DNA of 64,000 nt from contig BRXU01000027.1 of assembly GCA_030267565.1 (NCBI GenBank), positions 1,349,001 through 1,413,000 on the forward strand, in the 5' to 3' direction. The DNA is from Pleodorina starrii. Its lineage: Eukaryota > Chlorophyta > Chlorophyceae > Chlamydomonadales > Volvocaceae. This document shows positions 3,365-28,981 of this stretch, one piece after another. A model generated the notes under the pieces. That model worked only from the letters and a program-made list of their open reading frames with translations, made no database searches and was not told the origin of the DNA. Each line of letters opens with the position of its first letter. Positions within the stretch are counted from its first letter, which is position 1. The position numbers and the translations under genes were made by a program.

Positions 3365-6300
3365 CTAGCGCGGGTCCGGCAGCCGCACGATCTTCACATA
3401 GTCCTTGGGCGGGACCGGCAGCCGCTCCTTCTCGCAAGTCCGCACAAGCGACTCGAACGCCTCCGTCAGCGTGGCCGTGTCCTGCGTCAAGATGAAGACG
3501 GGCGAAGCGGGGGGACGGGCAGGGCGGTGATGTGGAAGGCACGTGCCCCCATGGCGCGAACCGGCAAGCTGGACATCTGACAGAATTGACACACGCTAGG
3601 CTGAAACCGCTTGCCAGACCCGCCCTACCTGCCACATGCCACATTCCCACCCTATTCGATCGCTTCGCTTCATGACCTCCTCACACCTGCCCCGCTGCAG
3701 AAGTCGGGACCTGCCCCACCCCAGCCTTGCTCCCCTCACTCACTCGCTACACCTGCCCCCCCCGGCCGTCCTTACCTCTCCCCCCCCACCCCCCATCCCC
3801 TCTCCTCCTCCTCCCCCTCCTCCTCCTCCCGCGCTCGCCTCGCCCTCACCCATCCCGGGCCACACACCCCCCCATCCCCGCCACCCCTCCCCTCAGTGCC
3901 CCACCTGCGGGCTGAGCAGCACCAGCTGGCTGCCCGGGTTGCTCCTCCAGGCGAACTCCAGCAGCGCCATGGTGGCCAGCTTGCGCGCGCTGTTGTCCAT
4001 GTACACGTCGTACTCGTCCATGGCACGGAAGGGCGTATCCAGTACCTCGCCCATTGCCAGCAGGAAGGCGGAGGTGGTGAAGGAGCGCTCGCCGCCTGGA
4101 GGGCGTGGCGGCACGGGGTTGCGGGGTTGCGGTTACGAGTGGGCTTTTATATTACGAGAGGGCTTTTATCGTCCTAAGCGAAATACTGGGGGTTTAGTTA
4201 AGGTTGGTAGAAAAAATAACGGAACTGCAGCGGAATGAACGGTAAGGTGAATGGATGCAGATGAACCGGGCGAATGAATGGAGAAGGTGGGGGTGACCGG
4301 GATGTGGGGTGTGCCGGTTACCGGTACGGCATCGCACGACACCAGTTGCGTTTCCGCACGAGGCGAGTGGTGAGTGGTGACTGGTGACTGGTGCCCCGTC
4401 CGCTTAGCTCCTCACCGCTCAGCTGCATGAGGCTGGTGGCCTGCTCCTCCTCGTGGTTCTTCCGCACAGTCAGGTCCAGCCGCTCCTCCACGTGGTCCAG
4501 CTCCAGGCGGGCGGTGATGTTGCGGCGCTGCATGTAGCGACTGAACTTGGAGTTGGAGACGTGCTCGATCTATTGGAGAAACGCGACCCAAAAAGCGAGA
4601 GAGAGAGAGAGAGGGCAAGCAAGAGAAGATACCGTGTGTGTGGGGGTGGGGTGGGGTGGGAGAGGCGGACGAGGGGGGTTCGTTTCGGAGGGCGACGCAG
4701 GGGAGGATGGGGCAGAGGACATGGCAGGCGGGGCTGGAGCCAAGGGGCCCCAGGGGAGCGCAGCGCGCAGGTCCGAATCAGCAGCCAACCGAGCCCACCC
4801 GCCCACCCAGTCAGCAGCCCAGGAGCCATACACACACACACGCACACACGCACGCAGGGCCTCCCCGCACCTGCTGCCGCAGCCACTTGTACTTGGCCTT
4901 GCGCCGCGCGGCCGCCTCGTGCATGACGCTGGCCTGCTTGGCCACAGCGTCCTGCGCCACGCGGGCGCGCTCCAGGTCGGCCCGCGCCGCCGCCAGCTGC
5001 AGGCTGATCTCGTCCAGGTGGCCCTCCGCCTGCCTCTCCGCCTGCTGGATCCTCCGTTCCGCCTCGGCCGCCCATTGCTGCAGGCCCTGCGACACGGGCG
5101 TGTGGGCGGATGGAGCGGGGCGCGGGACAGGTAGCAGAGGCGCCCGGTGCCGTCCCTTCCAGTTTCTCTGGGGTGGTGCCCTGCCCTGCCCTGCCGTGCC
5201 CTGCCCTGCCCGGCCCGGCCCTGCCTGGCCCTGCCCTGCCCGTCAGGCGGTACAGCCCATGAGCCTCTCCCTCCGCGCGGATGCCCCTCCGGAGTGTCAG
5301 ACCAATTATTACCTACCGCATCCTACCCCCCCCCCGCTGCCCTTCCGCCGACTCGCCACGTGCGCCCTCTCACCCGCGGCGTCAGGGCCTGCGCCAGCAG
5401 CTCGTCTCGCTGCTGCTGGGTCTTGTTGGGGAAGCGCTCCTCTAGAGCCTGGCGCTTGGAATCGCGCAGCCGCTGCAGCGCCTTAACGCCCTCGTCGTAC
5501 GTCCAGTGCTGGGCCAGGGCAAAGGGGAGGGCATAGGGCGAGGGAGCAAACCGCAAGCAGGTCGCGGAGCAAAACCTCAGGGAGGGGAGGGGAGCGGAGG
5601 CGCGCGGATTGCGCTGTAAGGCAACCCCCTCCGGTCCACCAGTGCCTCCGCTGCTTATTTGACACGGGCTGCTTCACACCGCCCGCGCTGCAGTACCCCC
5701 CCTCCCTTCCCTTCCGTGCGCCGTCTGTCTTCCCCGCGTGTGACCCCTCGTCCCATGCCTACCCTGGCCGCCTGGTGGTATGCCTGGTCCGTCCTCCGCT
5801 CGAACTCATCGATCCGGTCCTGCACGCCCCGCCAGCCCTCTTGCTCCGCCTGCAACCGCGCCCGCCAGTCCGCCAGCGCCTCGGCCGCCTCCTGCTTGCG
5901 CTGCGCCAGCTGGCTCAGCTGCTGCATCAGCTCCTCCCGCCGGGCCTTGTACTCCTCCGTCTGCTTGTGCAACTCCTCCAGTCTGAGGGGGAGGAGGGGG
6001 CGGAGGAGGTAGTGAAGGGGGAGGGGGCGGAGGAGGCGGGGGTAGTGAGGCGGGGGTGAGGGCAGCGACGTACCGGGAACGGCTACAGCGGTCGCCCATT
6101 GCGTCCTGGCAAACCGCGGTGAAGGCAACCCAAAGTGACCCGACCCGGATGTTCCGGACGCGCCCCCTTCCCCACGCGGGGCCTCCACCCCACCTCGCAA
6201 CCTCCCTAGCAGCCCGCTACGAAGCACGAAGCGCCAACCATTGAAGCACAGACTACACCACAAACCACAAACCAAAAACAACAACGAAGCGAAATCAATT

Positions 6301-9300
6301 GAGGCGGTCGAACGCGGCGGACGCGGCGGACGGGCAAAGGGGGGTGGGGCCGCAGGGCCGCAGGGCCTCACCAGGCCTCTACCGCTACCGCTAATTCGCC
6401 ACTCAGTACTCACTCTGCCGTCAGCGCCTGCGCCTCCGCCGCCGCGTTGTTTCGCTCCGTCTCCAGTCGGGTCTGGCTGGCTACCGCCTGCGTCAGGTCG
6501 CGCTGCGTGGCTGCCAGCTGGTTGAGCAGGTCGGTGGAGTGCGCCTCGCTCACCGCCGCGGGGGCCGCCTCCAGCAGGCTCTCCAACTGAGACTGGGCCA
6601 GCCGCTGCGGGGCCGAAGGGCGGGAGGGAGGGATCGGAGTGCGTGTGCTTTGCGGGGGTCAGGGAGTGATATGCTCTTGATATAAGAATGAGACACTGCG
6701 GACGTTGTTGATCAAGCTGCTGCGGCCTGACGAAGCTGCTTTTGAGGGCGGGGGGGGAAGGATGAGCGAGAGCGGGGGCGGGGCCACCGTGCGAGCGAGA
6801 GCGCGAGACTGTGCCGGCAGGGAGGCCCGCACCGCAAGCAGCACAGCAGGGAGGAGGCACCCGCTCCCCCGCTCCCCGCTCCCCCGCTCCCCCAGCCAAC
6901 GTCGCCTCCTTTCAACGCTGCGGTTTGTCTTCCCTTCACCCCCCCACCCCTCCCTCCCTCCCTCCCCGAGCCCCACCTTCTGGCGGGCCAGTCCCTGCTG
7001 CCGCCGCTGCAGCTCCTGCAGCTCCCTGCGGGCAGCCGCCACCGCCGCCTGCGCATCCCGGGCCGCTGCCTCCGCCTGCTGCCGCTCCGCCTCCCGCGCC
7101 GCCACCTCCCGCTCGCTCTCCGCCAGCTGGGCCCGGTTGTTGGCAGCCAGGCGGCAGGTGCTGGAGGCGGAGGAGGGGGAGGAGGAGGAGGAGGAGGAGG
7201 GGGAGGAGGAGGAGGTTTGGCAGGAGGGAGGGGAGGCGGGCAAGTGGGAGGACGGAGGTGGCGGCGGTGGCAGCGGCGGAGCCGGGGGCGGAGGTATGGA
7301 AGCAGAGGGATGGGGCAGGGAAGGATGGGCACCTGAATCGCGACAGGAGCTCCCCACGCACACACGCACATCAACTCCTCCTCCTCCTCTTCCCTCTTCT
7401 GTGTCCTCTCGCCTCCCTTGTCCACCCGCCGGCAACCGCCGGAAAAGCCGCGGCCCAGGAGCAGCCCTTCCCAGCCGACCCCGAGGCACCCGCCCGCCTA
7501 CGTCCCTGCCGCACCACCCCACCGCGCTGCCCTCTTACGCACTTGGCTCCTTGCCCGATCCCACCGCTCCTCCCCGCTTCCCCCCTTCCCAGCGGTACCT
7601 TAAAAAGAACCTCCCCCTCCCCTCCTCCCCTTCCCCCCCCCTCCCCTCCCCCCCCTCCCCTCCCCCCCACCTGGGCAAGGTGAAGGTCTCGGTGACCATG
7701 GCCCGGCCCCCCAGGGACGAGTAGCAGGCGCCCTGCGGGTCGTAGGCCTTGCGAATGCGGCGATCGACCAGCCCCCGGTCCAGGCCTCGCCCCACCAGCT
7801 GCCCCTCCTCCTGGCTCCCCACCAACACCACATTGGCGGCGGAGGACTGGTCCAACAGCGCATTGTTGATCAGCGTGGCGCGAAGCTGGGGGGCGGGGAG
7901 GAGGAGGAGGGGGGAGGGGGGACAGGGAGTGATATGCTCCTTTATGTAGAAAATGAGTCACTGCGGACGTTGTTGAGCAAGCTAGGGGGGGAGGAGGGGG
8001 GTGCGGGGTGAGGGGGGTTTGAAGAGTGAATTTGCAGAAGAATGGAACAGGAAGAAGGTCTGAAGGTCTGAAGGGGGAGGGGGGAGGAATGCACTTGTGT
8101 GGGAATCCACATGTGCGGGGGCGGGCGGGAGGGTGCCCACGGCCACATGGGAGGCTGCCCCACCTGCAGCGCAGCTGTGACGGGCCCACACCACAGCCTC
8201 CCCTCCTCCCTCCCTCCCTCCCCTCCTCTCCCTCTCCCTCCCCTTCCCCTTTCCCTCCTCGCCCCCTCCTCCCCCTCACCAGCGGCTCCAGCTCCTCCCG
8301 CGGCTCCACCAGGTCAATCAACCGCCGCCACACCCGCCCGCGCCCGTCCACCACCGGCTGCCACCCGAAGTCGTGCACCCGCTCTCTGAACGGCGACACC
8401 ACCACCTGCGGCGCCGGCCGGCAGCCGACCCGCTCCGCCAGCCGCCGCAGCGCATCCCCGTCCTCGTGCCGGTCCACCAGCCACAGCCCCAGACAGCCTC
8501 GCAGCGCCAGCTCCAACACACGCCCCAGCGACGCGTCGCAGTCGGCGCGGCGGCGCAGGTACAGACCCACGGGTCCCAGCGGCGGCTGGCTGAAGGTGCC
8601 CCGCGGCGCGGCGCGCACCGCCGCCACGAGCGCCATGGGCCCATGGCCCCAGGCGCGCACGTTCACGAGGTGCATCTCCCGCTCGTTGCCGCCTGCGGCC
8701 GCCAGCAGCTCACCGTGCGCGTCGCTTGCTTCCTTGGCGGCGGCGCGCGCGGCCTCGGCCGCGGTGGCGGCCTCGCCGGCCGCCGCCTCCGCGTCCGTGA
8801 GGCGGGCGGAGCGGTCGTTGTGGTCGGCCTCCAGCGCCGAGATGGCGGCCTGCAGAGCCACCAGCTCCCCCTGCTTGGCATCCACCTGGGGGAAGTAAGG
8901 AAGGAAGGAAGGTGAGACCATAAGCCCATAATCCTATCAGAACTGCAACGCGGAATCGGGACTGGTTGCAGCAACCATGGATAGCACCATCCAGACAACC
9001 ATAGATACCGTAGCCGCGAAGTCTCTACGTGAAGTCAGTGAAGTCCCACCTGCTGTTGGTGCTCCCGCACCCGCTGCATCAGCCCCTCGCCCTGCCGCTC
9101 CGCCTCCAGCGCCTCCAGCTCCTCCTCCAGGGAGGTCCGCCGGTCGGTCAGGTCGCGTGCGGCGGCCGCCGCCTCATCCAGCTGCCGGACCAGCTCCTGG
9201 CGGCGGCGCTTGGCGGCCTGGCGGCGGGCGCCCAGCTCCCGCATGCGGGCGGGCAGCTGGTCGGAGCGGGTGTGCTCCATCTCGTCGCGCTGGGGGAGGA

Positions 9301-12300
9301 CGGGGAGGGAGGGCGGGAGGGAGGGAGGGAGAAGTATATGGGAGTCAGAAGAGGCAGGCAGTGGTGATGGTGGTGGTGATGGTGGTGGTAGTGGTGGGGT
9401 GGGAGGTTAAGTGTGAGATGCGTCATTGGACCTGGTCAGGGCGGAGGGGGGGAAAGAAGGAGTGGGCCGGGGATCGGGTGAGGAAGAGGGGGCGGGGGTA
9501 GAGGAGAACGGTATGGGAATCCGAAGAGGCAGGCGGTGGTGGTGGTGACGGTGGTGGGGGTGGTGTAGGAGGGGTTGAAGAGTAAATTTGCATGATGGTG
9601 AGGGGGAGCGGAGGTTAGGCGTGGGATGCATCATTGGACCTGGTCAGGGCTGGGGGGTGGGTGGGAGGAAGGAGTGGGCAGGGGACTCCTCACCGCAACC
9701 CCAACCGCAACCAGAACCCCTATCCCAACACCCGCAGCCCTCTCTCCACACACCCCATCAGACACCCCAAAACCCCAAAACCCAAGCCCTCCCACGCCCC
9801 GCAACCCACCAGCGCGGCCTCCCTGGACTGGAGCTCCTCCGCCGCCGTCTCCGCCGCCCTCACCGCCTCCTCCAGCTCCGCCACCCGCGCGGGGAAGGCG
9901 GCAGCCGCCGCCTTCTGCTCTCTGAGGCCCGCCCGCGCCTCCTCCACGATGGCCCACACCGTCGCCACTTCTAGATTGGCCAGATGCGACTTGAAGCTGC
10001 AGGCACGGGGGTGGGGGTGGGGGTGGGGGTGGGGAAAGGCAAGGTGGGAGGGGAGGGAGGCGGGTGGCGCGTGGGACGGCAATTTGGGAGGAGGTGGAGG
10101 AGGTTGCTGCAACAGTCATCCACGGACGCATTGCACTCTCGGGCCCTGGCCGGCTGGCCCTGCCCCGCAACCCCGCTCCTTTTCTTGTGTGTGAGGTTTT
10201 TAGCGTTTTTGGGGTTTTTAGGGTTTGATTTTAGAGGTTTTGCGATAAGTGAGGGCGAGGGCAGACCTTGAGAAAGCACCGACCCCATGGGCCCCCCGGC
10301 TCCCCGGCTCCCCGCCCCCGCCCCCCAGCTGAGACGCAGCAGCTGCCGCGGCGCTTCCGCGTTCCGCCCAACCCACATCTCCGCGTCCTGCAGCGTCTTG
10401 AGCCGCCTCTCCAGCTCCTTGACCTTGCTCTGCTTGGTCCGCAGCCGCTCGAGGTGCTCCAGCAGGTTCCGATGCGTCCGCGCCACATTGACGTGCGCCG
10501 CCGCCAGCGTGTCGCGAGTCTTGGCGAGGCAGGTGCCCGCCATGTACATCTCGTACTTCTTGCAGCGGGGGCCCTGGGTTGCTGCATTGGAAGGAGGGAC
10601 AGGGAGGGAGGGAGGGGTTATCCAAGTACAGGGGGGGAAGGCGAGGGCCGTAGGATAGGAGGGCGTGCGGGGACGGGGTGCATACGCCCAAGGCACGGGT
10701 CTTCTTTTCCCTTGCATACCTTGCATACAGCGCACTCGCCCCAGCCCGCCGCCCAGCCTTCATATGTCCTCTTCAGCCGGTGTAAACTTTCTGCACAGAC
10801 CCCAGTCTGCGCAAACCCAGCCCAAAAAGGCCCCCAGCAAACACATCCAGCCGGCCGCCCAGCCAGCCAATGTTTTAAGGGCTGACCTGAGCCCCAAACA
10901 CGCGCGCCAGGTTCTGTGTGGGTGGGTGTGTCTCAACCGTCTTTCTCCTGACTCCGCGGGGGGTACCACGTACCGGTACTCCTACGAAGCTCCCACTTCA
11001 CAGCCACACCGAGTCCCACGGCCACCCACCCACCCACCCACCCACCTACCCACCCAGCCACCCAGCCACCCAGCCACCCAGCCACCCAGCCACCCAGCCA
11101 CCCAGCCACCCAGCCACCCAGCCACCCAGCCACCCAGCCACCTACCCACCCAGCCACCTACCCACCCAGCCACCTACCCACCCACCCAGCCACCCAGCCA
11201 CCCAGCCACCCAGCCAGCCACCCACCCACCCAGCCACCCACCTACCCTGGTGGAACCTTGCGGCCATGTCCTGCGTAATCACTATCAACGGGTTGGACGC
11301 GTCGACGTTGAAGTGCTCCGCCAGCACCCCCACCTCCTTGGAGGCCGACTGGCGCATCACGGACGGCTTCACCTCGCTGCCATCCGCCGCAAAGAGCTGG
11401 TAGGAGGAGGCCGTGACGGTGCGGTTGCCGGCCGCGTCCGGCTCGCCGGCGGAGATCTTGCGCACGATGCGGATCATGGAGCCGTAGCTGCAGAGGCGGC
11501 GGAGACAGAGGCGGAGGCGGAGGCGGAGACGGAGGCGGAGAGGCGCATGTGGGCCGCAGTACTGGCATCCCGACAGGCCAACTGACATCACGGGTGGGGA
11601 ACCACCCCGCTCACGGCCCCCAAGAGACTCGCGGCGCGGCCCCGGCCCGGCCCAACAAGAACCCGGTTAACCCCTCACTGCCACAGCCCCCCCATTCGAA
11701 CACGTCCCTCCCCCCATCCGGCAGGCAGCAGCCACGCCGCCCAAACCCCGCCCCTCACGCCCTCCCCTCGCCTCCTCCCCCCTCCCCGCTCGCCGCTGCT
11801 TCCCGCCTCTCCGCCCCTCCGCTGCGCTTATCTTCTTTATCGCCGCCCGCGCCCCCCTCCCCCCTCCCCCCCCGCAATGACTCATTTTTTTGTATAAAGG
11901 AGCGTATCACTCCCTGTCCCCCCTCCCCTTTCCCCCTCCCCCGCCGCGCAGCTCAGCTCACAGCTCGTGCCGGAAGGGCGGCCACTTCTGCATCTCCACC
12001 TCCTCCTCCGTCGTGTTCCACATCTCCAGCGTCACAGTCGCGGTGCGGCGCTCCCTCCTGACCCAATTGCCCAGGCTGCTGCCGCGGCCCGTGTCGCGCG
12101 CGCTGGCGCCCAGACAGGCCTGCAGGCCCTGCAGCAGCGCCGACTTGCCGCTGCCGTTGAGACCCGCAACGAAGGTCACGTGCTTGCTGCGACGCGGGGG
12201 GTAAACAGAGAAAATCGCGGGGGGTAAAAAGGAGAACCCGCAGCGGAGACCGAGACGGCGACGTGGGGGGTGGGGGGTGGGGGCGGTGCGAGGATGGGGA

Positions 12301-14644
12301 AGCGGGGTAGCGGCATGGGCGGGCGGTCGCGAAGGCGGTTAAAAAAGGCTGGGGACGGGGAACGGCGCGCGCGAGGGCAGTGGCGAGCGGAGGTTTTCCG
12401 CCCCTGGCGGAAAGGGATGTGCCTGAAGTGGGGTCTGTGCAGTGGTGTGGGGCACTGGCTTAAAGGGTATGACCTTAACTTAGGCGGCTCCGAGCGACCC
12501 GCCGTCCGAGGATTTGATCCATGCGATCCAAGCCCCCCACGCACCATTCGCCAGTCACGCCAGCCCGCAGGCCGCCCCTCCAGCGGCCCCGTCCCCTTCC
12601 CTTAACCCCCCCTCGCCCCCCCCCGTCGCCTCTCCGTCCCTCCGCTGCGACATCTCCCTTCCCCACCCCTCGCCAGTCCGCAGGCCACTCACTTGAACAA
12701 TACCTCCAAGTTCTCGTGGTTCATAAAGTTGACGAGCTGTATCCGGTGCAGGTGACCGGCGGCGAAGGGCTCCCGGCCGCCCAGCGTGCGCCGCGGCGGC
12801 GCCTTCGCGGCCACCCGCTCGTGCTGCGGCATCTGCTGGGGGGGCGGCTGGGGCGGCGGCTGTGGCTGCGGGTGCGGCTGGGCTCGAGGTGGCGCCTCCT
12901 GAGGGCGGCAGGGGAGCCCATAATTCAGAGGAGCGAGGGCAGCCCGGCCGATGGCTGCTGCGCGTTCCTAAGCCATACATGCACTCCCGGTCCCCTCGCA
13001 CGTGAGGCGATGTCCATGGCTTGCTACGGTACGTAGCTCGGGATCCCTACGCCCAATTCTAGTCCCACCAGACGCCACCGGGCTCTAGCACCCCGCAATC
13101 ACGCACCCCGCCCAAACCCATGCTGTTGATGCCCTCGCCCAGCCGGCCCAGCCTCACGTATGGCTCCAGGTTAAGGCGCCGCCGCGTCGCCGGCCGGCCC
13201 TGCTCGCTATCCGAATCCTCCAGCAGCTCGATACGATCCGGCTCCGGACCATCGGCGCCGGCGGCGTGGTCGGCAGCCTGCACGCACCCGGACAGCGATT
13301 GGCAACAGCGGGGCGTTCGGCAAAGCGGAGCGGAGCGCGGACTTTTCGCCGCTCGGCCAGGCGGTACCGACCATCGGCAGGAGCCGAGAGAGAGAGGGAG
13401 AGGACGAGAAGGGGAGAGGGCAGCTCGACTGCGGCGGCGGTGGTGGTGGATGTGCGGTGCCCGCCGAGAAGGCCGGATGTGAGGGTGCCCTCCCGGCACC
13501 CAGTCATCAACCCCGGCCGTCGCCGTCTGAGGCCCACCCCCCCTGCACGCGTTTCCGCTCCTGGGGTGCGTGCCCCCTGGACGAACCTGGCCGCGGGCGG
13601 GGTGTTGGGAGCCCGGATGCGTGACCTTGCTGCTGGGCGGCGCGACCGCCTTCCGCCTGCGCGGCTGGGAGCTGCCATTGGCTTGGCCACCGGATCCCGG
13701 CTCCAGTCCGTGGCGCTGCTCTCCCCCGGCGTCCGCAGCGCCGTAGCCGCCTCGCCCGCCGTACTGCTGTTGCTGGTGGGCCGGCGTCTGATGCCCCGCT
13801 GCGCCTGACTCATGCGGGCCGCCGGCATGGGGGCCTGGGTTTTGGAAAGAACGCGGGGAGTCGTTAATCCGGCGTCAAGAGCCAGCGACGGGCGGCGTGG
13901 AGATGGGGTGCTGGACGGCGCGGTGTGCGGGATGCATGGTTGCGTGGCGACGCATGTGGTGGTTGTTTACTGTAACAAGGTTCCTTCACGGTGCATGCGG
14001 GACGAACACGAAAGTGTGGGCGTGCGGCCGGGGTGGGCGAGTGGCCGCGAGTGGGGCCTGGGTCGTGCGGGCAGCATGCGGAGCGCACCTGCAGCCCTTT
14101 CAACCACAGCCCACTTCCGAAAGTCCTCCCACCACATCTCCTCTTCGTCGGCATCTGCTTCATACCATACCTGCGTAGCAATTTGCCCAAAAAAGCACGC
14201 TAAAAAACAACCCTGCATACCGTCTGCCGGGGCTCCATCTACATCAGTGTCTGGGCGCGGCTCCGGAACTTTTCTGGGTCCCCCAGGCAAACCGGATCTA
14301 GCCCAGCCGACCGAAATTGGCGTGTTAAGCCCCGTCGTAAGCAAGGAAAGCTTCCGCTGGAAGCCCACGTGCTCAACTATCGTTCCAGTAACACCCGCTG
14401 GACAGGGTATCGTACTCATCGACCAGCTCGTCATTATCGCGTCGGCGTGTCCCAACCCACCAACCTTCATGTATGCAATATTGTCATGGATGTCCACGCT
14501 AACTACAGTGCCTGTGTACCAATCTTGTCCGCCGAAAAGCCTGCAGACCCTTCGCCCCACATACTGACGGGCCTGCTCTGAATGCCCCAGCGACACTGGA
14601 AGCGAAAAATCGGGAGCCATATGCTGCGGGCGTACCGGGTACAT
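3365..14644 (-). CDS. SMC6: SMC6 paralogue A with N-terminal Tudor-like domain
   Basis: ATPase subunit of the SMC5/6 complex, which works in nuclear DNA repair and chromosome segregation. I assemble 20 exons, all phase-consistent, coding about 1404 aa: 14644-14465, 14170-14089, 13834-13587, 13277-13107, 12898-12693, 12186-11962, 11487-11246, 10581-10377, 9996-9810, 9289-9050, 8885-8280, 7885-7671, 7160-6977, 6604-6414, 5982-5763, 5508-5374, 5086-4871, 4569-4416, 4095-3905, 3481-3365. The ATG at 14644 has an in-frame TAA seven codons upstream. Residues 28-80 form a Tudor-like domain (VGRRVCRLFGG, WYTGTVV, then WYEADADEEEMWWEDFRKW), followed by a Gln/Gly-rich linker with RRRK. Walker A is GLNGSGKS at 304-311. 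Coiled coils flank a hinge coded mostly in the 8885-8280 exon. The signature is SGGERSF near 1303 and Walker B AMDEYDVYMD near 1330. The usual SMC6 length is about 1050-1150 aa; the excess is N-terminal. SMC6 identity is firm; the first three exon joins are inferred from phase. Confidence 0.88.
6659..6722 (+). repeat. 62-bp interspersed repeat, copy 1 (SMC6 A intron, antisense)
   Basis: Begins CAGGGAGTGATATGCTC, continues with ATGAGACACTGCGGACG and ends near CAAGCTGCT. It lies in an intron of SMC6 A on the strand opposite to the gene. Related copies are at 7923, 11875 (reverse) and 23421. Confidence 0.85.
7923..7984 (+). repeat. 62-bp interspersed repeat, copy 2 (SMC6 A intron, antisense)
   Basis: Same element as at 6659, with CAGGGAGTGATATGCTCC, a TTTATGTAGAAAATGAG middle and CACTGCGGACGTTGTTG near the end. 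It sits between G-rich low-complexity sequence on both sides, so no target duplication can be judged. Confidence 0.85.
9337..9690. repeat. Imperfect tandem duplication of about 175-208 bp (SMC6 A intron)
   Basis: Two units start near 9337 and 9512 with TATGGGA then GAAGAGGCAGGC and a GGT-rich run. Each later has GGAGGTTA followed by CATTGGACCTGGTCAGGGC (about 9403-9440 and 9611-9650). The units differ by an internal insertion of about 33 bp. All lies between the exons at 9810 and 9289. Confidence 0.75.
11020..11245 (-). repeat. 8-bp satellite (GGTGGCTG) starting at a 5' splice site (SMC6 A intron)
   Basis: On the coding strand the intron starts GTAGGTGGGTGGCTGGGTGG and continues as an 8-bp array of about 225 bp. 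The strand is G-rich. The array occupies the first third of the intron between the exons ending at 11246 and starting at 10581. Confidence 0.9.
11875..11918 (-). repeat. 62-bp interspersed repeat, copy 3 (truncated, sense to SMC6 A)
   Basis: Read on the minus strand it has CAGGGAGTGATACGCTCC, then a longer A run, then ATGAGTCATTGCGG. It stops before the GACGTTGTTGA part. It is the only copy in reverse orientation and is 3' truncated. Confidence 0.8.
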
Positions 14645-15028
14645 ATTCACGTCGCTGCAGGTTTATGGGCCCCCAGAGCAGGGTGGGCCCTTAAAGCTAG
14701 CAGTATGGCGCGTGAGGGTAGCCGGCTGGGTAAGGGTGCGTCATTGCACCTTGCAGTTTCAACAAATTGTAACGCTCGTGAGCAAATAAAATGGACTCAT
14801 GCATGGTCCATGGTGTCACGGCGCCGTACAGCATTTTTGGGTTGTCACGCGCGCCGGGCATTTCACGCCGCGCGTCAGTAAGCTTTCCTGCTGACACTAT
14901 TGAAAGGCTTATCGTTCGTATTGTAATATAGTCTGAAGGGGTCGATCTCCCTTGCCCTGCGACCTGTGCACGACACGGAAACTACCGTAACTCGCTTTAC
15001 GCAACAACGCCGGCCCTGATAACTCTCC
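14645..15028. promoter_or_regulatory. Probable bidirectional promoter of the SMC6 pair
   Basis: The inferred start codons of SMC6 A (14644, minus) and SMC6 B (15029, plus) are separated by 384 bp with no other gene. Both starts have an in-frame stop just upstream, so coding does not extend into the gap. The stretch is less GC-rich than its surroundings and contains a GGGCCC-flanked inverted motif near 14669-14692. No TATA box is convincing. The function is inferred from position only. Confidence 0.55.
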
Positions 15029-18000
15029 ATGTTGGCTGTCAAGCCGCAATATAGGAAAGACGCTAAGGTCTTCTGCGGCCGGAGAGTCCGGAAGTCGTTT
15101 TTTACAGGAGCCGGGAAAAAGAAAAAGGATTACTTCTTCGGCACCGTTGTTGAGTGCCCTATATTCCATGGCGAAGTGTGCTACAGTATACGTAAGTTGT
15201 GACGTTGACTTTGCGGTCTCACGCAGAGGAATGGGGGTCATAGCCAGATGTGTTGTTCGCTTCGCCCGGGTCAAACGCACCGTATCCATCAAATCGTCAG
15301 TGATGTCGCCCGTGGTGTCAAACATGACATGCAAACTGCACTTGCGGCGCTGGTAACCGCCGGCGATGGTCTGACTGCTTTTCCCGCCAATAGAGCCGGG
15401 AAGAACCCTTGGCGCTCCATGTTGCTATGCCAACCTGCAGAATACGACGACGGCGACACAGAAGACATTGCGTGGGAGGAGCTTGTAAAAATAATGCTCC
15501 CTGAGCACCAGCCTTCGACTTCGGGTGAGTCGGACGACTGGACGACGAAGATAGGCATCCTGTTCAGGTTATCGCTCGTGATGAGGAGGTAGGAAAGCCA
15601 ACTAACGGACATTTTGCTGCCTGCTTCCTGCCTAAGGGCTCACCGATGCCACAAATGTCACTGACGCACACGGCAGGCACGGTGGTGAGTCGGGAAGGGG
15701 CAAGCCGACGCCGGCGGATGTGGGGTTAAAATTGGGTTCACCTTCGGGTTGTTACACATTTGACAAGCCCCAACTATTTAACAAGCCCCAACTGGAGTCG
15801 CAAGACGCGGATTTCTGGCCCCCTCAACCCTGCGTCTTATTGTCCAGTGTAGCGCAAAACCCTTCTCCCAACCGGGTCATTTGACCCCCTGCAACGCAGG
15901 TTAGCATCTATCCGCTTTCCAACAGCTAGGTTAGCAGCAACCCTTTGGTATAAGGATGAACCAAGCAATGGCCGTCCCGCGTGCCAACGCCAATGGCGTA
16001 CGGAACATTGCCACGTGCTTCGTTCTAAGCCCTTTCACTTCTAGCATCTGTCCCTCTCATCGTCTCCGCTTTGGCTCAGGGAACGCGGCTTCACGTCAAA
16101 CGTCGCGCAAACAGCCTAACGGGCTGGTGACCCCACCGACCCAGGACGAGGGCGCTGAGCCGTCTGAGGTCGGCACCGCCGGGCAGCAGCCGCGGGTGCA
16201 GCGGCAAGGCCGCACACGCAAACGGGACGTTGCGGAGAGAGACGCCGAGCCGCAGAGCCACCAGGCCGACTGCGCAGCAGGTGGACCGGGCAGCATCCGG
16301 GGCCGCGAGGCGATGCCTGACGGTGCTGAGGTGCAGGGCGCGGACGCGGAGGCGCAGGCAGAAGAGCGCCCAAGGAAGCGCCGGGCTGGAGCGCAAGCTG
16401 CTGCAGAAGCGGAGGAGGCGGCGGCGGCGGAGGCGGCGGAAGATGCGCACCAACAGGTTAGGAGGGCGCATGCGAGGAAAAGCGTGTGCGCGTTGTACCG
16501 GTATCGAATCATGACCTCCTCCAGCAGTGGGGTATGGAACATCAGGTGTTGTGTGTGTGTGTGTGGAGGGGTGGACGACATGCCATCGACCGCCTGCAGG
16601 ATCTAGCACACCTGGGCGCACCTGCTCACTACCGTACATCCTGCGCCTTTCATGTGCCAGGCGGACCAGGTGCCGCTGCCGGTGCCGCCCGAGGGCGAGG
16701 GCGACGACGCGTCCGGCTTCGTTTCCCGCACGAGGGGGCTTGCCGGCCAGGTTGCAAAGATCCACGTGGAGAACTTCATGTGCCACCAACACTTTGAGCT
16801 GGAGTTCGGGTGAGCGAGTTCGGACCGCTGACGGATCACGTATCTTTGCCAGAGGCGCCGTGCAGCGGGAGGCGCACTGCAAGGGCGCGCCGCGCGCGCT
16901 TGCTGTGCGCTGGGCTTCGCGTTGCAGCCACAGGTCCTGCGCTGCGGTGCCCTGTGCTGTCAGACCTGGGCGTTTTCCAGTTTAACCCCAGTTTTCTGCC
17001 AGACGGACGCCGCTTCCCAACAACATGCCCTACTGCCCAACATTCTCGTATTGTGTCCAGGTCGCACGTGACGCTGGTGAGCGGTGCCAACGGCAGCGGC
17101 AAGAGCGCCGTGGTGCAGGCGCTGCAGGTTTGCCTGGGCGTCACCGCGCGCAACACGGGACGCGGAACTGGAATCGCCGACCTGATCCGCTCGGGTTGCC
17201 CCGATTCGAAGGTCCAGGTGACCTTGTGGAACACCGGCGAGGACGCGTTCATGCCATCCGTGTGAGTCCCCGCGTCCCGCACTGCACCCGGCGTCCGTGC
17301 ACTCGAGGGGGGGGGGTAATGCAGGGCGTGGCATCCTGCGCGCCGTCTTTACGATCGACTGCCGGGCGATTGCGCTGGGCTCGAGTAGCACGCCGCCGTA
17401 TGGCTGCACCGAGGGCTGTGTGAAACGCGAGGCCTTTGAGCCGCGAGCAGGCACTGACATCCAGTGCCGTAAACGTTTGGTCGCCGTGTCTACCCGTGGC
17501 TTCGCCTGTACATCGCATTAGCGCGGAGGTACCGTACTCGCCGACAACTGCTGAGGGTACCCTCCTGCCTTGCGTGCCCTTTGCGCCCGCCCTTCACACG
17601 CCACATGCTATGGCTTTAAATTATTATATACAACGGCAGTTTCGGCGACCGCATCACGGTGGAGCGCCACTTGAAGCGTGCTGGCGCTTCCACGTACGCG
17701 CTGCTGGACGCGCGTGGGCGCAAGGCTGCTCTGGACCGGGGTGAGCGGGTCAAGGACGTGCTGGACCGGATGCTGGACCACTTCACTGTGGACGCCAACA
17801 ACCCGCTCACGATCATCACGCAGGACAAGTCGCGGAGCCTGCTGCAGGGTACGCTTGTTGTGTTGGGGGCCTCCTGAACGATGCAGCAGGCCGAGCGCTT
17901 GGGGGCGGCGCGCGAGGAGGTTCAAAGCTGCATGACAGACTTTCTCGTTGTGGGTCGGGGAAGGCGTTCGTTAGCACGCACAGACACACACACATACACA

Positions 18001-21000
18001 TCCCACCAGGTGGGTCTCATCGCCGTCGCGTTTCGTCGCGTCGCACGCATAGTAGTGTGGAGTAAGCGAGCGTGCCGTGGCCAGGGTAGCCAACGCGCAG
18101 CGGATCAGCTCTCGAGACCAAACATACAACTCGGCCGCACTTCGCATCTGTCTCGCCGGGTGCGTGGGTTGGGTATCTGCCGGAGCTTCACCATGCTCCA
18201 TTTCCCCAGGGACTCCCCTTGCTCTTATCCTGTGGCGCCTGGGAACAAGTAACACACACCCCTGCCTCATCAGCACCTACGCATACAATGGCTCGGCAGT
18301 TCAAGGCGCCCGCTAGTCCTCACCCCCATGCTAATCTTGACGACGCATGTGGACATGCTGCGATCTCAGCTGCGTTGTGGGCTGGTCCCCGCTGCGCATT
18401 GTGACTCGCTGCCAACAACAGACAAGTCGAACGCGAAGGACAAGTACGAGATGTTCATGGCCGGCACGCTGCTCGACAGGGTCCAGGCAAGAACACACCG
18501 GGTTCCCTCTGGGCGTGAGCTGTGCCTAGAAGCTGTTTTTTCTTTTTCTTCTTCTTCGGTATCCAACAGTCCAGCAGTCACAGCGGGGACGTGTACGTGT
18601 GCAAATACGCGCGGCAGCCAGGATAAGGGGGGGCGCTCAGCATGGAACGCTCGTGGTTGAGGATGCAGGGGTTCACCTGGGCCCATTGCGCGCGGGTAAT
18701 TGTGGGTCCACCAGCCAGCGGCCCGCACAGGCCGCGCGCTGTGAATGAACCAAAGTCGAAACGGACGCGCTGTGGTCGTTTCCTGTGTTACATGATGTGG
18801 GTTGTTGGACGCGCTGTGGTCGTTGTTGCCCTGTGTCACAGGGGGACCTCAAGGCCGCAAATGCCCAGGTGGCTGCGATGATGAAGAACTTCGAGGAGAC
18901 CAAGACCCGGTTCAACGCCGAGCAGCAGGAGGCCGCTCAGCTCAACAGCAAGGTCCAGAAGCTCCGGGACGCTGACAAGTAGGTTTCAGGTTTCACATCA
19001 GGAGACCCAGCACCGCAATGGCTGTCACGGCGCGGATGGGGGGGCGGGGCGGTCATTCACACTGCGGTACCGCCGCACGTCGTAATTGGTGCGGGGCCAG
19101 CTGCTCACGTTTACGTCACGGGGTTGCGGAAGTGAACACGGCTCTGGGTGGGCCGTTGCCTTAAACTTGAGCCCGCACACGGGTGCGCGTTGCAGGTTCC
19201 TGCAGGACCGGGAGATGCTCGAGCGGGCTATTGCCTGGCGGGCGGTGCAGCAGATGGAGGAGCGCGTGGTGGTTGCCAAGGACGCCGCGGAGACCCGCGG
19301 GCCGGAGCTGCTGGATGTGTACGACCGCCACATCGCGGCGGTTGCGCGCGCCAAGCAGGAGCTGATCGACCGCCAGGAGGAGCTGGTGAGGGAACAGCAG
19401 CCCTGGTTACGTATCCGGGTCACGGGGTAGCATGCGCTGAGCTAGATCGCAGCGCACGTCCGGTTCCTGCGTCTGGTCTTCCGACGTGCTTGTTCGTGGT
19501 TGGCGTTACAGGCGGCGGAGCTGGTGCAGCACGACGCGATCATGGCCAACCAGACCACGCACGCCGAGGCACTGCTCAAGGCGCAGAGGGATGCGCGCGC
19601 CGCCATGGACCGGGCGAAGCGGAGCAAAGCAAGCGCTCAGTCCAACTTGGACACGCTGCGAAACGAGCAGAAGGTGAGGCACGCGCGCCGCGCGAAGGTA
19701 TCCCTGCCGGCCTGCCTTTGCGTTCTGGCGGCCCCCGGGGCGGGCCTGGGCTCGGCAGAACCACTGCGACCTTGGCCCCTCTTGTGGTGGAGTGGCCGAG
19801 CCGGCGGAAGGACGAGGTTTGAAAGCAGCGTTTCCTGGTGCCTTTCGTGACCCTTCGTGAGTGGGGGCCCGCGTCTTCCCCCGAACGCTGCCCCGACGTA
19901 GGCCCTGGATGAGCAGCTGGCCAAGGACAACAACGGGAAGGCCGCTGAGGCGCGCCGCCTGGTGGAGGAGCACCAGCAGCAGGTGGGGCGGGGCGGCAAA
20001 GGCAGCCGCGCTGCAGTGGGAAGTGCGGTGCGGACTGTGCTCTCAAAGGTGGAAGCACGCACACGTTGCGGGTCGGTTACTGGGTTCCGGACTGGACTTT
20101 GCTCGACGCAGGCAGCCGCGCACGCACACTGCCGGCACTGTTGTTTTGCTGTTGCTGACCGCCTCGCGACGCGGCCGTGTGCCCAGGTCACGGCCAAGCG
20201 AGCAGCCCTCAACGAAGCTGTCGAGGCGTTCAACGTCGCCACCCAAGCTCTCGAGTGAGTCGACGGCGGCACGGCCCTGGGCCACCAACACCTTTCGTAC
20301 GTTGAGCTGCCGATAAGGGGGATCGGGTAAACAGAAGAACAGTCCAGACACTGCGTCCGTCCTCGTGCGTCGCGCGTCTTGCACACACAGGGCTGCGCGG
20401 AGCGAGTCGATGGAGCTGCAGAGGCAGGAGACCGCCGAGCGCGAGAGCGTCCAGCACTCAGCTAAACTGGTAAGCTGCCGGATGCCTCTTCTCCTTTTTC
20501 TGCGCCCGCATCGATGGCAGCGCGGTGCGATGCGCGGTGCCTGCGAGCGCGCGATCTGCGCTACGCTTGCGCAGGTAGCGGCAGAGCGTCCCAGGCGTAA
20601 TAAAGGGAGTGGTTTTTTCCGCAATGTCCGCAGGTCGCCGAGTTCCAGAAGCAGCTGCATGAGCTCGATGCGGCCCAGGGCAACCGGCTGGGCATCTTCA
20701 ACGCGGCGGGTCTGGACGACCTGATCAGCCGCAACGCTCACCGCTTCCACCAGCGGCCCATCGGGCCCATTGGCGCGTTGCTCACCGTCAACGAACCCAA
20801 GTGCGCAGGGGAGGGAGGGGACGGCCTAAGGCCAGGAAAGCACCTCGCGTCCGGGTCGCGCACCCGGCCAACCGGCTAACGCCCAGGCCGGCTTGTGAGC
20901 CGCGACCCGTGCGCAAGCATATGACGGCCATGCTGCTACCCCCATCCCTTTTGGGCTTGACAGGTGGCGGCTGGCGACCGAGGTGGCACTGGGCAACGTC

Positions 21001-24000
21001 TTCCGGGATTACCTGGTCAGCTGCACGACGGACGCCAACCTGCTGCGTGAGCTGATGCGGCAGGCGCGCTACCAGCGCGCGTCCGTGGTGACCTCCAACT
21101 TTGCTGCGCCGCTGCACAACATTCCTCCCGCGCGCCGCCCCGCCAACGGCTTCATGGCCCTGATGGACGTCTTGATGGTCCAGGATCCCGCGGCGCACAA
21201 CCCCGTCATGAACTACCTGGTTGACAAGTAAGACCGCAAGGAAGCGTAGCTAGTGTAGCTGGTTTCGTATAACAAACCATTTTGAGTCTGGCTGTTGGAT
21301 CAGGGCGCCGTAGTGAGGTTTGCCGCTGGAAAGGGGAGGGGTGCGGTCAGGACATGTAGGCGACGCGGGTGTGTGCTTGCATAATAGAGTAAGGCTCTCT
21401 GCTGCGCTTGAGTGCCGTCCACGATGCCCTCTGCTGTGCCAGGTTTCGCATCGAGGCCACTGCGCTGGCGGAGAACCAACAGCAGGGGCAGTCGGTCAAC
21501 CACGGACAGGCCGCGGGGGCGCACATCTCCGCCGCCATTGACACGGGCGGGAACTGGTACAGGCGCAACAACGAGCTCAAGTGGACCGACCGAAATGAGC
21601 GAGTGTGAGTGTGCCGCAATTAAAGCAGGCTTGTGGTTGAGGCTGTCTTGCGCACGCGAGGCATGGCGTCTCGCACGAAGCAGCTGGGGAGGCGAGCAGA
21701 TGACGACGTGTCTTGGCGTCTGCGGGTACGCAGGAAGGAGCAGCACTGCCGCCTGATTGCGGACGTGTCGAACTACAAGGCCGCGTTGGAGCGCGACCTG
21801 GAGCAGAGGGAGGCGCAGCTGGGTGCGCAACGCGAGGACCTGGCGGGCCTATCCAGTCGGCTGCGAGAGGCACGCGCGCGCGAGGCCCAGTGCGACCAGG
21901 AGGTCAAGCTAGCCTCCAATCGCAGGGTACGTTGCTGGAATCGTCTTTTTCTTGTGGTCTCCGCTTGTGGTCTCGGCTGATGCAAGTGATCACCCCCCAT
22001 CTCAACCTGTAAGATTTGCTGGCCCTGGGGCTTTCCAACCTGCCCCTGGACGGCATCTTAAGGTTTGCATCCTGGTGAAAAGCGTGATTTCAGTGTTTCT
22101 TGGCCATATGTTTCTTCGTGGCCTGAGGATATAGGCGGCGTGCCAGCAGAGGTGTTGCGCTGTTCATCGGCCGCTGAACTGGGTGCCTTGCCTGTACACC
22201 GCAGATGCGCGCCAAAACCGACCTTAACCGGCTCACGGCGCAAGCGCCGGAGATGCCCAGCTTCGAGGACGACGAGGAGGCGGGAGCTGTGCTCACGCAG
22301 CTCGCTTCCATCCAGAACGAGCTCGCCGGCTCGCAGATCCAGCTGCAGACCGCGGAGGAGGGGCTGGCTCTGGCGGAGCAGGTACATCCAAGGGCCTTGA
22401 TTTGGATCATGCCGAGCGGAGCAATTCCCTTCGGAATGTGGGCCGTGTCTGCAGATGCCGACCTCTTATGTGGGAGAACATCTGATTCAGAAAGCCTCTG
22501 GTGTACGATTAAGCGCCCCCCTGATTCTCCTTGGAAACTTATTTGTTCCCTTCTCCCGCGAAACCCGCAGGCACACCGGCAAGCGGTTCAGCAGGCGAGG
22601 GAGGCGCAGGCGCGCTACGAGGAGCGGGTTGGGGACGGCAATCGGCTGCGGCAGCAGCAGTCGGAAGTCGCGGCGCAGATGGCGGACCTCGACGGGATGC
22701 GCAATGTTGCGATGCAGAACCGGGATACAATCAGGGTGAGCCTTGAGAAGCTGCGCAGCCGCGTGGAGGCGGCCGACGCGCAGCTGCAGCGAGCACTCGC
22801 TGCCGCCGATCAGGTACGTACTGCCGTGCTTGTGGGATGGGTCATGATGCCCGCCCCGCCCTTGTTGCCGGTGGGATCGGCTGGAGGTGCTGCTGCTGAC
22901 CGGTCGCACAGGGACTAGCACTACTGCTCTATTACGGACTTCGGGCAACCAACATCTCCTCACCCCCCTTACAACTAAGGGGTCGGCCAGAAAATTGGGA
23001 CCCGGAACTTTCCGGGGGCTTCAGTCATGCCTTCACTTCTGCCTGCTTGCCTGCCTGCCTTTGCCATACATACATACATGCACACACATACCGCTTACAT
23101 TCATGTTGACCCCTCGCAGCAACTCGGCGGACTTCCACGGCACACGCGCACCGTTGGGGGCACCGTGACGCCCTCTTTCATGCAGCATTCGTCAGGCTGT
23201 CTGGAGGGTACAGAGTCCGTTCCATTCGTGCCGCACGCAGGTCTGCAGCCGTGCCGAGGGCGAGGACGCCATTCGGAAGGCGCGCGTGCTCGTCTCTGCA
23301 GTGGTGAACAAACAGCTGGCCAGGAAGCCGCAGTGGGCGAGCATGGGGAGGGACGAGCAGCTCAAGACGCAGGAGCGCGCGCTGGAGGCGAGCATGGACT
23401 TCGCGGTAAACAGGGGGGTCAGGGAGTGATATGCTCCATTATGTAGCATGAGACACTGCGGGCGTTGTTGGTCAAGCTGCTAAACAGGGGAGTAAACGCG
23501 GGTAAAGGGGGGCAAAGCATGATCATCTCCACCTTGTAATCCAGCCAACATCCAGATGGGTTAGCATTTCTTTGGGGGTATTAACGACGATTCCGCAGCG
23601 GAGGGACGTAGGCGGCCGAGAACCCATTTTACCATTACCCATTTCTGGGGCTGCTGCTTTCGGCCATTGCACCCGCTAACATGCTTGGTCGAACTTCCTG
23701 GCGCACACCCCTCTGCGTTGCGTTCCCTCGCCCCGGGCCGTCTTAATTACCCCTCTGCAGGGCCTTGAGAGACATCTGGTCAACGTGAACAAGGACATCT
23801 CCAAGGCGGAGGCGGAGGCCGGGTGCAGCGACCTGAGGGAACTGGAGATCCGACTCGAGGCGCAGAAGAAGACGGTGGGTCACGCAGAGAAGGCATACGG
23901 TTGGACGGGTGTACAGAGGGCATCGCTCTTACACTTCGATCAATCGCCAGTCGACGCCGGCTCGCACGCCATGGTCACATCCCACGGCCGCGTGCTGCCT

Positions 24001-24917
24001 TTGCGCCGTCTGTGTCATTCCTGTAGGTGGAGACGCGGCGGCGCGCCTGCAACCGCATGTGGGAGATGTTGCAGCGGTTTCAGTCCAGCTACGCCAACCA
24101 GGTGCAGTCGTTCGAGCGGCTGCGCACCAGCCTCATGGACATCACGCAGGCTAAGTTTGCCAAGTACCTGCGCCGCCGCGACCACGACGGCAGGCTGGAG
24201 TTCAACCACGCCGAGCGAACGCTCAAGCTCCTGGTCAAGCCCAAGGGCAAGAACAACCGGGACGCGCAGGCGGTGGAGGACCTCAAGCAGCTGTCTGGTG
24301 CGTTGTGTTTTGTGGTCGTGAGCCATTTGTCCCTCTGTGTGCTCGCTGTGAAACTAGGGCATCTAAGATTTGCGTGGTTCAGAAAGTGCATATCTACCCT
24401 TGGGGTTTGGTCATTTTAGTGGAGCTTTATGTCCCCCGGTTCCTGCGTGCTGGTTGAGCATGTGGGTCTTGCCTTGCCCTAGCCCCGTTATGCATGGCGC
24501 TCGGCCAGCTGGGCCGCAGCCCCTCCTCTCTCTCCTGAAGGTCTGAAGCCCACTGGAACAACTGCCCACTACCCACTGTGCTGCCCGCCGTCCGCGACTT
24601 GCCTAGGTGGTGAGCGGTCCTTCACGACCGTCGCGCTGCTGCTGGCCATTGGCGAGAACACGGAGAGCCCCTTCCGCTGCAACGACGAGTTCGACGTCTT
24701 CATGGATGACGTCAACCGCCGTGTGGCCACGGAGACGCTCCTGGAGTTTGCCATGGAGAACTCGGCCTTCCAATACATCTTCCTGACCCCGCAGGAGATC
24801 ACGACGGTGGAGGACGCGCGGCAGCAGCTGATGAAGCGGCGCCGGGTGCAGCTGCCGCCCACGTTCCTGCGGACGGTCAAGATGCACCCGCCGCGCGAGA
24901 ACGCCAACCACGCATGA
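15029..24917 (+). CDS. SMC6: SMC6 paralogue B with N-terminal Tudor-like domain
   Basis: Second SMC6 ATPase, diverged from A but complete. I assemble 23 exons (about 1343 aa): 15029-15191, 15441-15524, 16080-16456, 16661-16809, 17061-17261, 17640-17848, 18422-18486, 18842-18978, 19196-19385, 19512-19673, 19902-19982, 20187-20254, 20391-20469, 20634-20800, 20964-21227, 21443-21604, 21734-21926, 22205-22381, 22571-22813, 23242-23406, 23761-23874, 24027-24297, 24607-24917. The start follows an in-frame TAA by two codons. Residues 15-72 are Tudor-like (GRRVRKSFF, DYFFGTVV, then YDDGDTEDIAWEEL). A basic, Glu-rich linker with RTRKRD and RPRKRR follows. Walker A is GANGSGKS at about 266-273. The hinge includes RPIGPIGALLTVNEP. 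The signature GGERSFTT is near 1241 and Walker B is NDEFDVFMD near 1265. The intron after 18486 appears to be GC-AG. Identity is firm; the Tudor join is inferred from phase and good splice sites. Confidence 0.88.
23421..23482 (+). mobile_element. 62-bp interspersed repeat, copy 4, with putative target-site duplication
   Basis: Full-length copy in an SMC6 B intron, in sense orientation, starting CAGGGAGTGATATGCTCC. TAAACAGGGG occurs at 23408-23417 and again at 23482-23491, which looks like a target-site duplication of the first bases of the intron. No terminal inverted repeats and no coding capacity, so this would be a very short non-autonomous element. Confidence 0.6.
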
Positions 24918-28800: not shown

Positions 28801-28981
28801 GTCGGTCGGTCCGGCCCTTTCCTGACCGTGACGGCACCGATGCAGCCACGACCACGGCGGCGGCACGCTGCTTTGAGGCCGTGCAACGCGACAACTGTAA
28901 TTGCGATACATGCGAGCCCGTAATTGAAGTGCTGCAGCACGCGCTGCGCCCGCTGAGGGCCCGCTCCAGAAGTGCTTGCAT
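25860..28981 (-). CDS. engB: EngB/YihA-family GTPase, probably organelle-targeted
   Basis: TrmE-Era-EngA-EngB-Septin-class GTPase. Bacterial EngB helps assemble the large ribosomal subunit, and plant homologues act in organelles. Exons 28981-28211, 27930-27792, 27086-27007, 26480-26313 and 26093-25860 are all in phase and give about 463 aa. Motifs are G1 GRSNVGKS at 277-284, G2 [11 protein letters not shown]3 DLPGYG at 322-327, G4 TKAD at 389-392 and a G5-like TSAAKGLG. The first 257 residues are an extension absent from bacterial EngB (about 200 aa). It starts [16 protein letters not shown], which is plausible as a transit peptide, then becomes Pro/Ala/Lys-rich and finally very acidic (DDDDDEE). 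It shares a 363-bp divergent promoter with the F-box/LRR gene. Plastid versus mitochondrion cannot be decided from sequence. Confidence 0.92.

What the first reader, a model, noticed from the sequence alone, without database searches (positions are those of the whole stretch)
13587..16456. Both SMC6 paralogues appear to start with a Tudor-like domain
Assembling first exons by phase gives SMC6 A an N-terminus with VGRRVCRLFGG, WYTGTVV and VWYEADADEEEMWWEDF, and SMC6 B one with GRRVRKSFF, YFFGTVV and YDDGDTEDIAWEEL. The spacing from GTVV to the acidic Y(D/E) motif is 14 residues in both. Each block is split by an intron at almost the same place and joins to a basic, disordered linker through a phase-1 intron in both genes. 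Known SMC6 proteins begin almost directly at the Walker A half. A Tudor reader fused to SMC6 could tie the SMC5/6 complex to methylated histones or another methylated partner. To my knowledge this fusion is undescribed. The domain naming is by pattern, not by search.
Basis: partly seen in the sequence, partly recalled or inferred. Interest (0 to 1): 0.88.

Follow-up and report, generated by a model that had tools for sequence, protein, structure and literature searches.

The report
Algal SMC6 carries a Tudor reader
In several green algae the chromosome-repair motor protein SMC6 starts with an extra Tudor domain, a module that in plants recognises methylated histones, so this repair machine may find its place on chromosomes by reading histone marks directly.

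Summary
The window is Pleodorina starrii: its two head-to-head SMC6 genes encode proteins starting with a PTM/DIR17-type Tudor domain (PF21743), and the deposited proteins of both genes carry it.

It is not local. Models from Volvox, Astrephomene and Chlamydomonas have it, and profile searches extend it to Scenedesmus, Tetradesmus, Tetraselmis and one metagenomic lineage: 12 of 242 proteins held, all N-terminal. The tree suggests a gain early in core chlorophytes, before the volvocine A/B duplication, if some absences are truncated models.

The closest solved relative by profile is the Arabidopsis RDM15 Tudor, an H3K4me1 reader (7DE9, E 0.0017). Three RDM15 ligand-contact residues are identical in 12 of 12 algal Tudors; a fourth site is Phe in 11.

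Four literature searches showed no description. Most likely it is a methyl-lysine reader, best guess H3K4me1, on a 94-212 residue linker, steering SMC5/6 to marked chromatin. Fusion and fold are well supported; binding and function are inferred; no Pleodorina transcript was seen.

The parts
14465..14620 (-). SMC6 A exon 1: first part of Tudor domain (VGRRVCRLFGG...DWYTGTVV...IAYMK)
   Evidence: spliced model; deposited protein P0121 agrees
14089..14170 (-). SMC6 A exon 2: rest of Tudor domain (VWYEADADEEEMWWEDF...)
   Evidence: Pfam PF21743 31.1 bits on residues 1-81
13107..13834 (-). SMC6 A linker exons 13834-13587 and 13277-13107
   Evidence: linker of the A-type orthologue P0123 modelled at pLDDT under 50 over residues 95-293
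3365..12898 (-). SMC6 A: end of linker, head, coiled coils, hinge and C-terminal head (Walker A GLNGSGKS, signature LSGGERS, Walker B DEYDVYMD)
   Evidence: SMC_N 2.5e-15
14621..15028 (.). 408-base space between the two start codons, presumed shared promoter
   Evidence: coordinates of the two models; GC 0.547; promoter role inferred
15029..15191 (+). SMC6 B exon 1: first part of Tudor domain (CGRRVRKSFF...YFFGTVV)
   Evidence: deposited protein P0001
15441..15524 (+). SMC6 B exon 2: rest of Tudor domain (QYDDGDTEDIAWEEL)
   Evidence: PF21743 E 4.1e-11 in the whole protein
15637..15684 (+).
   Evidence: a related motif stands in the linker of 4 of 4 B-type Tudor proteins
16080..16809 (+). SMC6 B linker exon 16080-16456 and exon 16661-16809 leading into the head
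17061..24917 (+). SMC6 B head (Walker A GANGSGKS), coiled coils, hinge, C-terminal head
   Evidence: PDB best match Smc6 9.1e-76, best Smc5 1e-17

Best explanation
Both genes encode SMC6 subunits of the SMC5/6 complex with an N-terminal single Tudor domain of the PTM/DIR17-RDM15 kind, joined by a disordered linker (94-212 residues in the 12 proteins seen) to the ATPase head. The Tudor is an old part of chlorophyte SMC6. It most likely binds a methylated lysine, best guess monomethylated H3K4 at the H3 N-terminus, using an aromatic cage plus an acidic clamp as RDM15 does. Because it hangs on the SMC6 head, this would concentrate SMC5/6 on chromatin with that mark and favour loading or holding it there for repair or silencing. 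Shown: the sequence fusion in deposited models of several genera, the Tudor fold in models of two relatives, conservation of ligand-contact positions. Inferred: translation of the fused protein in Pleodorina, ligand, specificity, recruitment and its purpose.
For: Pfam PF21743 on A and B and, at E up to 0.1, on all 12 collected Tudor segments. Deposited fused proteins in Pleodorina A and B, V. africanus B and A, Astrephomene B, C. schloesseri B and A, C. reinhardtii XP_001697007.1. A profile of 8 finds 4 more SMC6 Tudors at 4e-16 to 7e-5, next hit 0.71; six leave-one-out runs give 8e-19 to 2.4e-6, best reversed decoy E 4. The Tudor is more alike than the linker in 8 of 8 protein pairs, e.g. Pleodorina and V. 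africanus B 68% against 47%. AlphaFold: 10-residue block means of 79-94 across residues 11-90 in C. reinhardtii and 75-90 over the strands in Tetraselmis, then a disordered linker, then the SMC head. Best PDB profile match 7DE9, the RDM15 Tudor, whose W616, Y623, Y641, D643, D645 and E647 contact H3R2-K4me1 (PMC8184781, passages). In the 12 algal Tudors Y641, D643 and E647 are identical in 12 of 12, the W616 site is Phe in 11 of 12, Y623 is aromatic in 11 of 12, D645 is Asp in 9 of 12; rank-sum permutation p 0.00018 over 60 columns.
Against: No binding data. The contact residues are also part of the family signature, so their conservation may partly reflect fold. W616 is Phe, not Trp, in 11 of 12; V. 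africanus A has Arg there and Ser at D645; Tetraselmis has Leu at the Y623 site and Glu at D645; Tetradesmus has Gln at D645. The match to 7DE9 is modest (E 0.0017). No transcript across the Pleodorina junctions was seen. Deposited models without a full Tudor: V. carteri, Gonium, C. incerta, C. reinhardtii SMC6A, C. eustigma, Haematococcus (2), Chlorella, Micractinium (doubtful remnant) and Scenedesmus NREL (cut-off remnant), that is 10 of 21 core chlorophyte rows. Tudor exons have lower GC3 (0.56-0.63) than the SMC body exons (mostly 0.8-0.96). Overall pTM of the two AlphaFold models is low (0.45, 0.39).
Confidence: 0.6

Rival explanations
1. The fusion is real, but the Tudor does not read histones: it binds a methylated non-histone partner, DNA or RNA, or has become a structural part of the complex.
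For: Tudor domains have varied ligands (recalled); a 2026 title states that DNA binding overrides methylation selectivity in the PHF20L1 Tudor (PMC13285377, title and start of abstract in a listing). Cage or clamp positions vary in V. africanus A, Tetraselmis and Tetradesmus.
Against: Four of the six contact sites are among the six best conserved of 60 columns; the best profile match in the PDB is an H3K4me1 reader.
Confidence: 0.28
2. The Tudor is present only in some transcripts: an internal start in the linker also gives Tudor-free SMC6, so reading is optional.
For: The deposited models of V. carteri, C. incerta and C. reinhardtii SMC6A start in or next to the linker; the B linker exon 16080-16456 holds an in-frame ATG (read from the model).
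Against: The V. carteri model begins MDPEQPPTSG, which lines up with the last residues of the Tudor exon of V. africanus and Pleodorina, so it looks truncated; a congener of C. incerta, C. schloesseri, has the Tudor on the same gene.
Confidence: 0.2
3. Artefact: two small Tudor genes lie next to SMC6 and gene finders joined them.
For: Gene finders can over-join; Tudor exons have lower GC3. One TGTAA, the usual poly(A) signal of these algae (recalled), lies at 15484 inside Tudor exon 2 of B.
Against: It would need the same error in both paralogues and in several genera. No TGTAA lies in the gap between Tudor and linker exons of A or B, but this test is weak: only 0.04 and 0.37 were expected there by chance, none was found in 465 bases after the A stop either, and the first after the B stop is at 25835. 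Separate SMC6 promoters would have to lie in those gaps of 254 and 555 bases. The Tetraselmis protein is, as I recall, from a transcriptome assembly.
Confidence: 0.05

Closest known systems
RDM15 Tudor of Arabidopsis, PDB 7DE9 (RDM15 is PDS5C, as I recall)
   Same: Single Tudor; best PDB profile match; Y641, D643 and E647 kept in 12 of 12
   Different: C-terminal on an RdDM factor (PMC8184781, passages) rather than N-terminal on an SMC ATPase; Trp616 there, Phe in 11 of 12 here
Plant MSH6 Tudor
   Same: A reader domain fused to a DNA-repair ATPase in the green lineage, reported to bind H3K4me1 (PMC12292046 and PMC13305816, passages)
   Different: Mismatch repair, not SMC5/6; its sequence was not compared here
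Canonical SMC6 of yeast, animals and land plants
   Same: Head, hinge and tail; best PDB match is Smc6 by sequence for B and by fold for the A-type P0123
   Different: No Tudor found by the profile in the other 230 of 242 proteins held (many of them not green algal, some bacterial SMCs), apart from a cut-off remnant in one Scenedesmus model and a doubtful hit in Micractinium
PF21743 PTM_DIR17_Tudor family
   Same: 12 of 12 segments match at E 0.1 or better
   Different: Family named after plant PTM and DIR17; the host protein here is SMC6

Membership tests
SMC6 | closer to Smc6 than to Smc5 or other SMCs | tested here: met
SMC6 | Walker A, signature and Walker B motifs present | tested here: met
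   read from the models: GANGSGKS/GLNGSGKS, LSGGERS, DEFDVFMD/DEYDVYMD
SMC6 | forms the SMC5/6 complex | not testable with these tools
   no interaction data
PF21743 PTM_DIR17_Tudor | score over the curated cut-off of 27.2 bits | tested here: met
   B 42.9 bits; A 31.1 as N-terminal piece but 25.5 in the whole protein. Relatives as whole proteins: Astrephomene 40.6 and C. schloesseri B 30.0 over it; V. africanus A 16.0, C. schloesseri A 19.8, C. reinhardtii A 24.5, P0014 25.4, Scenedesmus PABB004 18.2 and Tetraselmis 15.7 under it; Tetradesmus not listed at E 0.1, though its cut-out segment matches at E 0.1 or better
PF21743 PTM_DIR17_Tudor | Tudor beta-barrel fold | tested here: met
   strands 36-41, 50-62, 65-72, 77-81 and a helix in P0123, block means 79-94; same order in P0036 with one loop block at 49. 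No fold search was made with the Tudor alone; the whole-model lists were filled by SMC-type heads
H3K4me1 reader (RDM15 type) | aromatic cage and acidic clamp residues | tested here: inconclusive
   3 of 6 contact sites identical in 12 of 12, W616 site Phe in 11 of 12, Y623 aromatic in 11 of 12, D645 Asp in 9 of 12; Phe for Trp could alter specificity
H3K4me1 reader (RDM15 type) | binds H3K4me1 peptide | not testable with these tools
   needs ITC or a peptide array

The most novel reading that the evidence does not exclude
Since early in chlorophyte evolution the SMC6 ATPase has itself been a histone-mark reader, so SMC5/6 is placed on chromatin by H3K4me1 without an adaptor. In volvocines an ancient head-to-head duplication gave two such readers, a slower B and a fast-evolving A. 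If H3K4me1 marks silenced euchromatin in Chlamydomonas, as I recall, this would tie SMC5/6 to gene and transposon silencing.
Probability: 0.38. Interest if true: 0.85.

Novelty: new variant of a known kind. Interest (0 to 1): 0.7.

Why it matters
How SMC5/6 chooses where to act is an open question; known recruitment goes through partner subunits and adaptors (recalled). An SMC ATPase with a built-in histone reader would make the link between a histone mark and SMC5/6 loading directly testable in Chlamydomonas, where genetics is easy. It also parallels the H3K4me1 readers reported on plant MSH6 and PDS5C (passages), hinting that the green lineage has repeatedly attached such readers to genome-maintenance proteins.

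Tried and rejected
A simple splice-site dynamic program first skipped the Tudor exons and made zero-length exons; I fixed the N-terminal exons by hand and kept its body exons, and the deposited proteins later agreed. Single-sequence PDB searches with the B Tudor and the C. reinhardtii Tudor found no Tudor; only the 12-sequence profile did. Whole-model fold searches listed SMC-type heads only; they neither support nor exclude a Tudor match. Micractinium P0125: E 3.9 with the first profile, 0.26-5.1 with the second and its leave-one-out versions, 0.012 among 15 N-termini and 0 of 2000 shuffles as high; left as probable, not counted. The place of the metagenomic P0014 in the tree is unresolved. 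On the tree the label Tudor needs 8 changes if every model is taken at face value, and 24 of 500 shuffles do as well; several absences look like truncated models, so a single early gain is my reading, not a proof. The own-genome search for PF21743 gave 8 matches, one of them SMC6 B exon 2; SMC6 A was not among them, probably because its domain is split by an intron.

Only the best 120 of 128 and of 540 hits were listed and held. The library holds no bioRxiv preprints. Quiroz 2024 and van Dijk 2005 were not held; I know them only through other papers' passages or from recall.

Full report
What is there. Two genes lie head to head with start codons 408 bases apart (14620 minus strand, 15029 plus strand). 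Hand-checked splicing gives a 1396-residue protein A and a 1343-residue protein B. The introns used are GT-AG except one GC donor after 18486. Protein B matches Smc6 in the PDB at 9.1e-76 and Smc5 at 1e-17. Both proteins have the SMC N-terminal domain and, before it, PF21743 PTM_DIR17_Tudor.

Independent models. The protein searches returned P. starrii PLESTB_001481500 (B, 99% identical) and PLESTB_001481400 (A, 99%), so the window is from that species. Both deposited proteins begin with the Tudor. The same architecture stands in deposited proteins of V. africanus (B and A), Astrephomene (B), C. schloesseri (B and A) and C. reinhardtii SMC6B, which groups with the A type. Neighbouring locus tags in Pleodorina, V. 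africanus and C. schloesseri suggest that the pair has stayed together; orientation outside the window was not checked.

How far it reaches. A profile of 8 SMC6 Tudors was run on all 242 proteins held. Outside the seed it found V. africanus A (4e-16), Scenedesmus PABB004 (5e-10), Tetradesmus (7e-7) and Tetraselmis (7e-5); the next hit was at 0.71. Six leave-one-out tests kept each left-out member at 2.4e-6 or better, with relatives of some of them still in the profile, and the best reversed decoy had E 4. Thus 12 of 242 proteins carry it, each at the N-terminus; the 242 include non-green and bacterial SMC proteins. Among the N-termini of 15 other SMC6 proteins, a Scenedesmus model that starts inside the domain matched at 1.8e-5 and Micractinium at 0.012; the other 13 did not match.

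Tree. On 38 SMC6-like proteins (37 trimmed to start at the head; Chara, on a very long branch, was not), 21 core chlorophyte rows form one clade (100/100). Eleven of these have the Tudor: Tetraselmis, two Scenedesmaceae, and volvocine A (4 of 4) and B (4 of 8). The metagenomic P0014 lies outside it with unresolved place. The A and B clades are each fully supported and both carry the Tudor, so it most simply predates their split. Taken at face value the label needs 8 changes, and 24 of 500 shuffled labels do as well, so the tree alone does not prove one gain. Absences in V. carteri, C. incerta and C. reinhardtii SMC6A look like late starts in the models; Gonium, C. eustigma, Haematococcus and Chlorella could be real losses or poor models.

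Reader site. The 12-Tudor profile's best PDB match is 7DE9, the RDM15 Tudor (E 0.0017); SETDB1 follows at 0.03 (7DE9 named as RDM15 in PMC13361950, passage). The RDM15 paper (PMC8184781, passages) names W616, Y623 and Y641 as cage, D643 and D645 as clamp for the monomethylammonium, and E647 and Q654 for H3R2; Q654 lies outside the aligned stretch. By aligning the 7DE9 stretch to the 12, Y641, D643 and E647 are identical in 12 of 12; the W616 site is Phe in 11 of 12; Y623 is aromatic in 11 of 12; D645 is Asp in 9 of 12. These six sites rank 2, 3, 4, 6, 16 and 21 of 60 columns (permutation p 0.00018). In Pleodorina A and B the six sites read F, Y or F, Y, D, D, E. They are also part of the family signature, so this supports but does not show reading.

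Constraint. Between Pleodorina and V. africanus the Tudor is 68% identical in B and 48% in A, the linker 47% and 30%, the head 84% and 74%; in 8 of 8 pairs compared the Tudor is more alike than the linker. The Tudor is therefore kept better than the linker, mostly less well than the head. No codon-level test was made, for lack of DNA of the relatives.

Mechanism. The most likely scheme is a mobile reader on a long leash at the SMC6 head. Binding a histone tail would hold the DNA-gripping head domain of SMC5/6 near marked nucleosomes. H3K4me1 is the best guess because the nearest solved relative reads it and because plant MSH6 and PDS5C are reported to be guided by it (PMC12292046, PMC13305816, PMC13361950; passages). 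The linker is of mixed charge, not basic (net -25 to +5 over the 12). The A-type Tudors are acidic (net -5 to -13), which would suit a basic histone tail; the B-type ones are near neutral (-3 to +1).

Novelty. Searches of the open library found no paper with SMC6, Tudor domain and Chlamydomonas and none with SMC6, Tudor and H3K4me1. Fifteen papers hold SMC6 and Tudor, 13 Chlamydomonas and SMC6 and 3 the longer SMC name, Tudor domain and Chlamydomonas; judged by titles and starts of abstracts, none is about such a fusion. One of the 13 was looked at by passages (PMC2488364) and only lists SMC6 in Chlamydomonas. The deposited proteins with these Pfam domains are public, so the fusion is visible in databases but, as far as I could see, not discussed.

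Noticed in passing
15637-15684: A short linker exon of SMC6 B encodes LTDATN; a related motif ([GA]L[TSA]D[AT]TN) stands in the otherwise variable linker of 4 of 4 B-type Tudor proteins and in 0 of the 8 other Tudor proteins. It may be a short binding motif.
   Followed up: partly
6655-6721, about 7920, 23415-23485: A dispersed repeat of about 67 bases in introns of both SMC6 genes; at least 40 matches in the genome (lower bound); the copy near 7920 was seen by eye.
   Followed up: partly
10955-11278: Minisatellite of 8-base units (CCCAGCCA-like) in an SMC6 A intron.
   Followed up: no
L017:3805-4615 (L011): A frame that reads by eye as a SET domain with post-SET cysteines is followed by a PF21743-like Tudor frame (25.8 bits, under the cut-off): perhaps a histone methyltransferase with the same reader type. 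The SET part was not scanned.
   Followed up: partly
L010: Another PF21743 Tudor (32.1 bits) on a long low-complexity open frame elsewhere in the genome.
   Followed up: no
3365-14620: The A paralogue evolves faster than B (stem branch 1.25 against 0.55 changes per column).
   Followed up: no
1-2570 and 25870-28980: Neighbours read by eye as a WD40 (TAF5-like) gene on the plus strand and an EngB-like GTPase on the minus strand; not tested.
   Followed up: no
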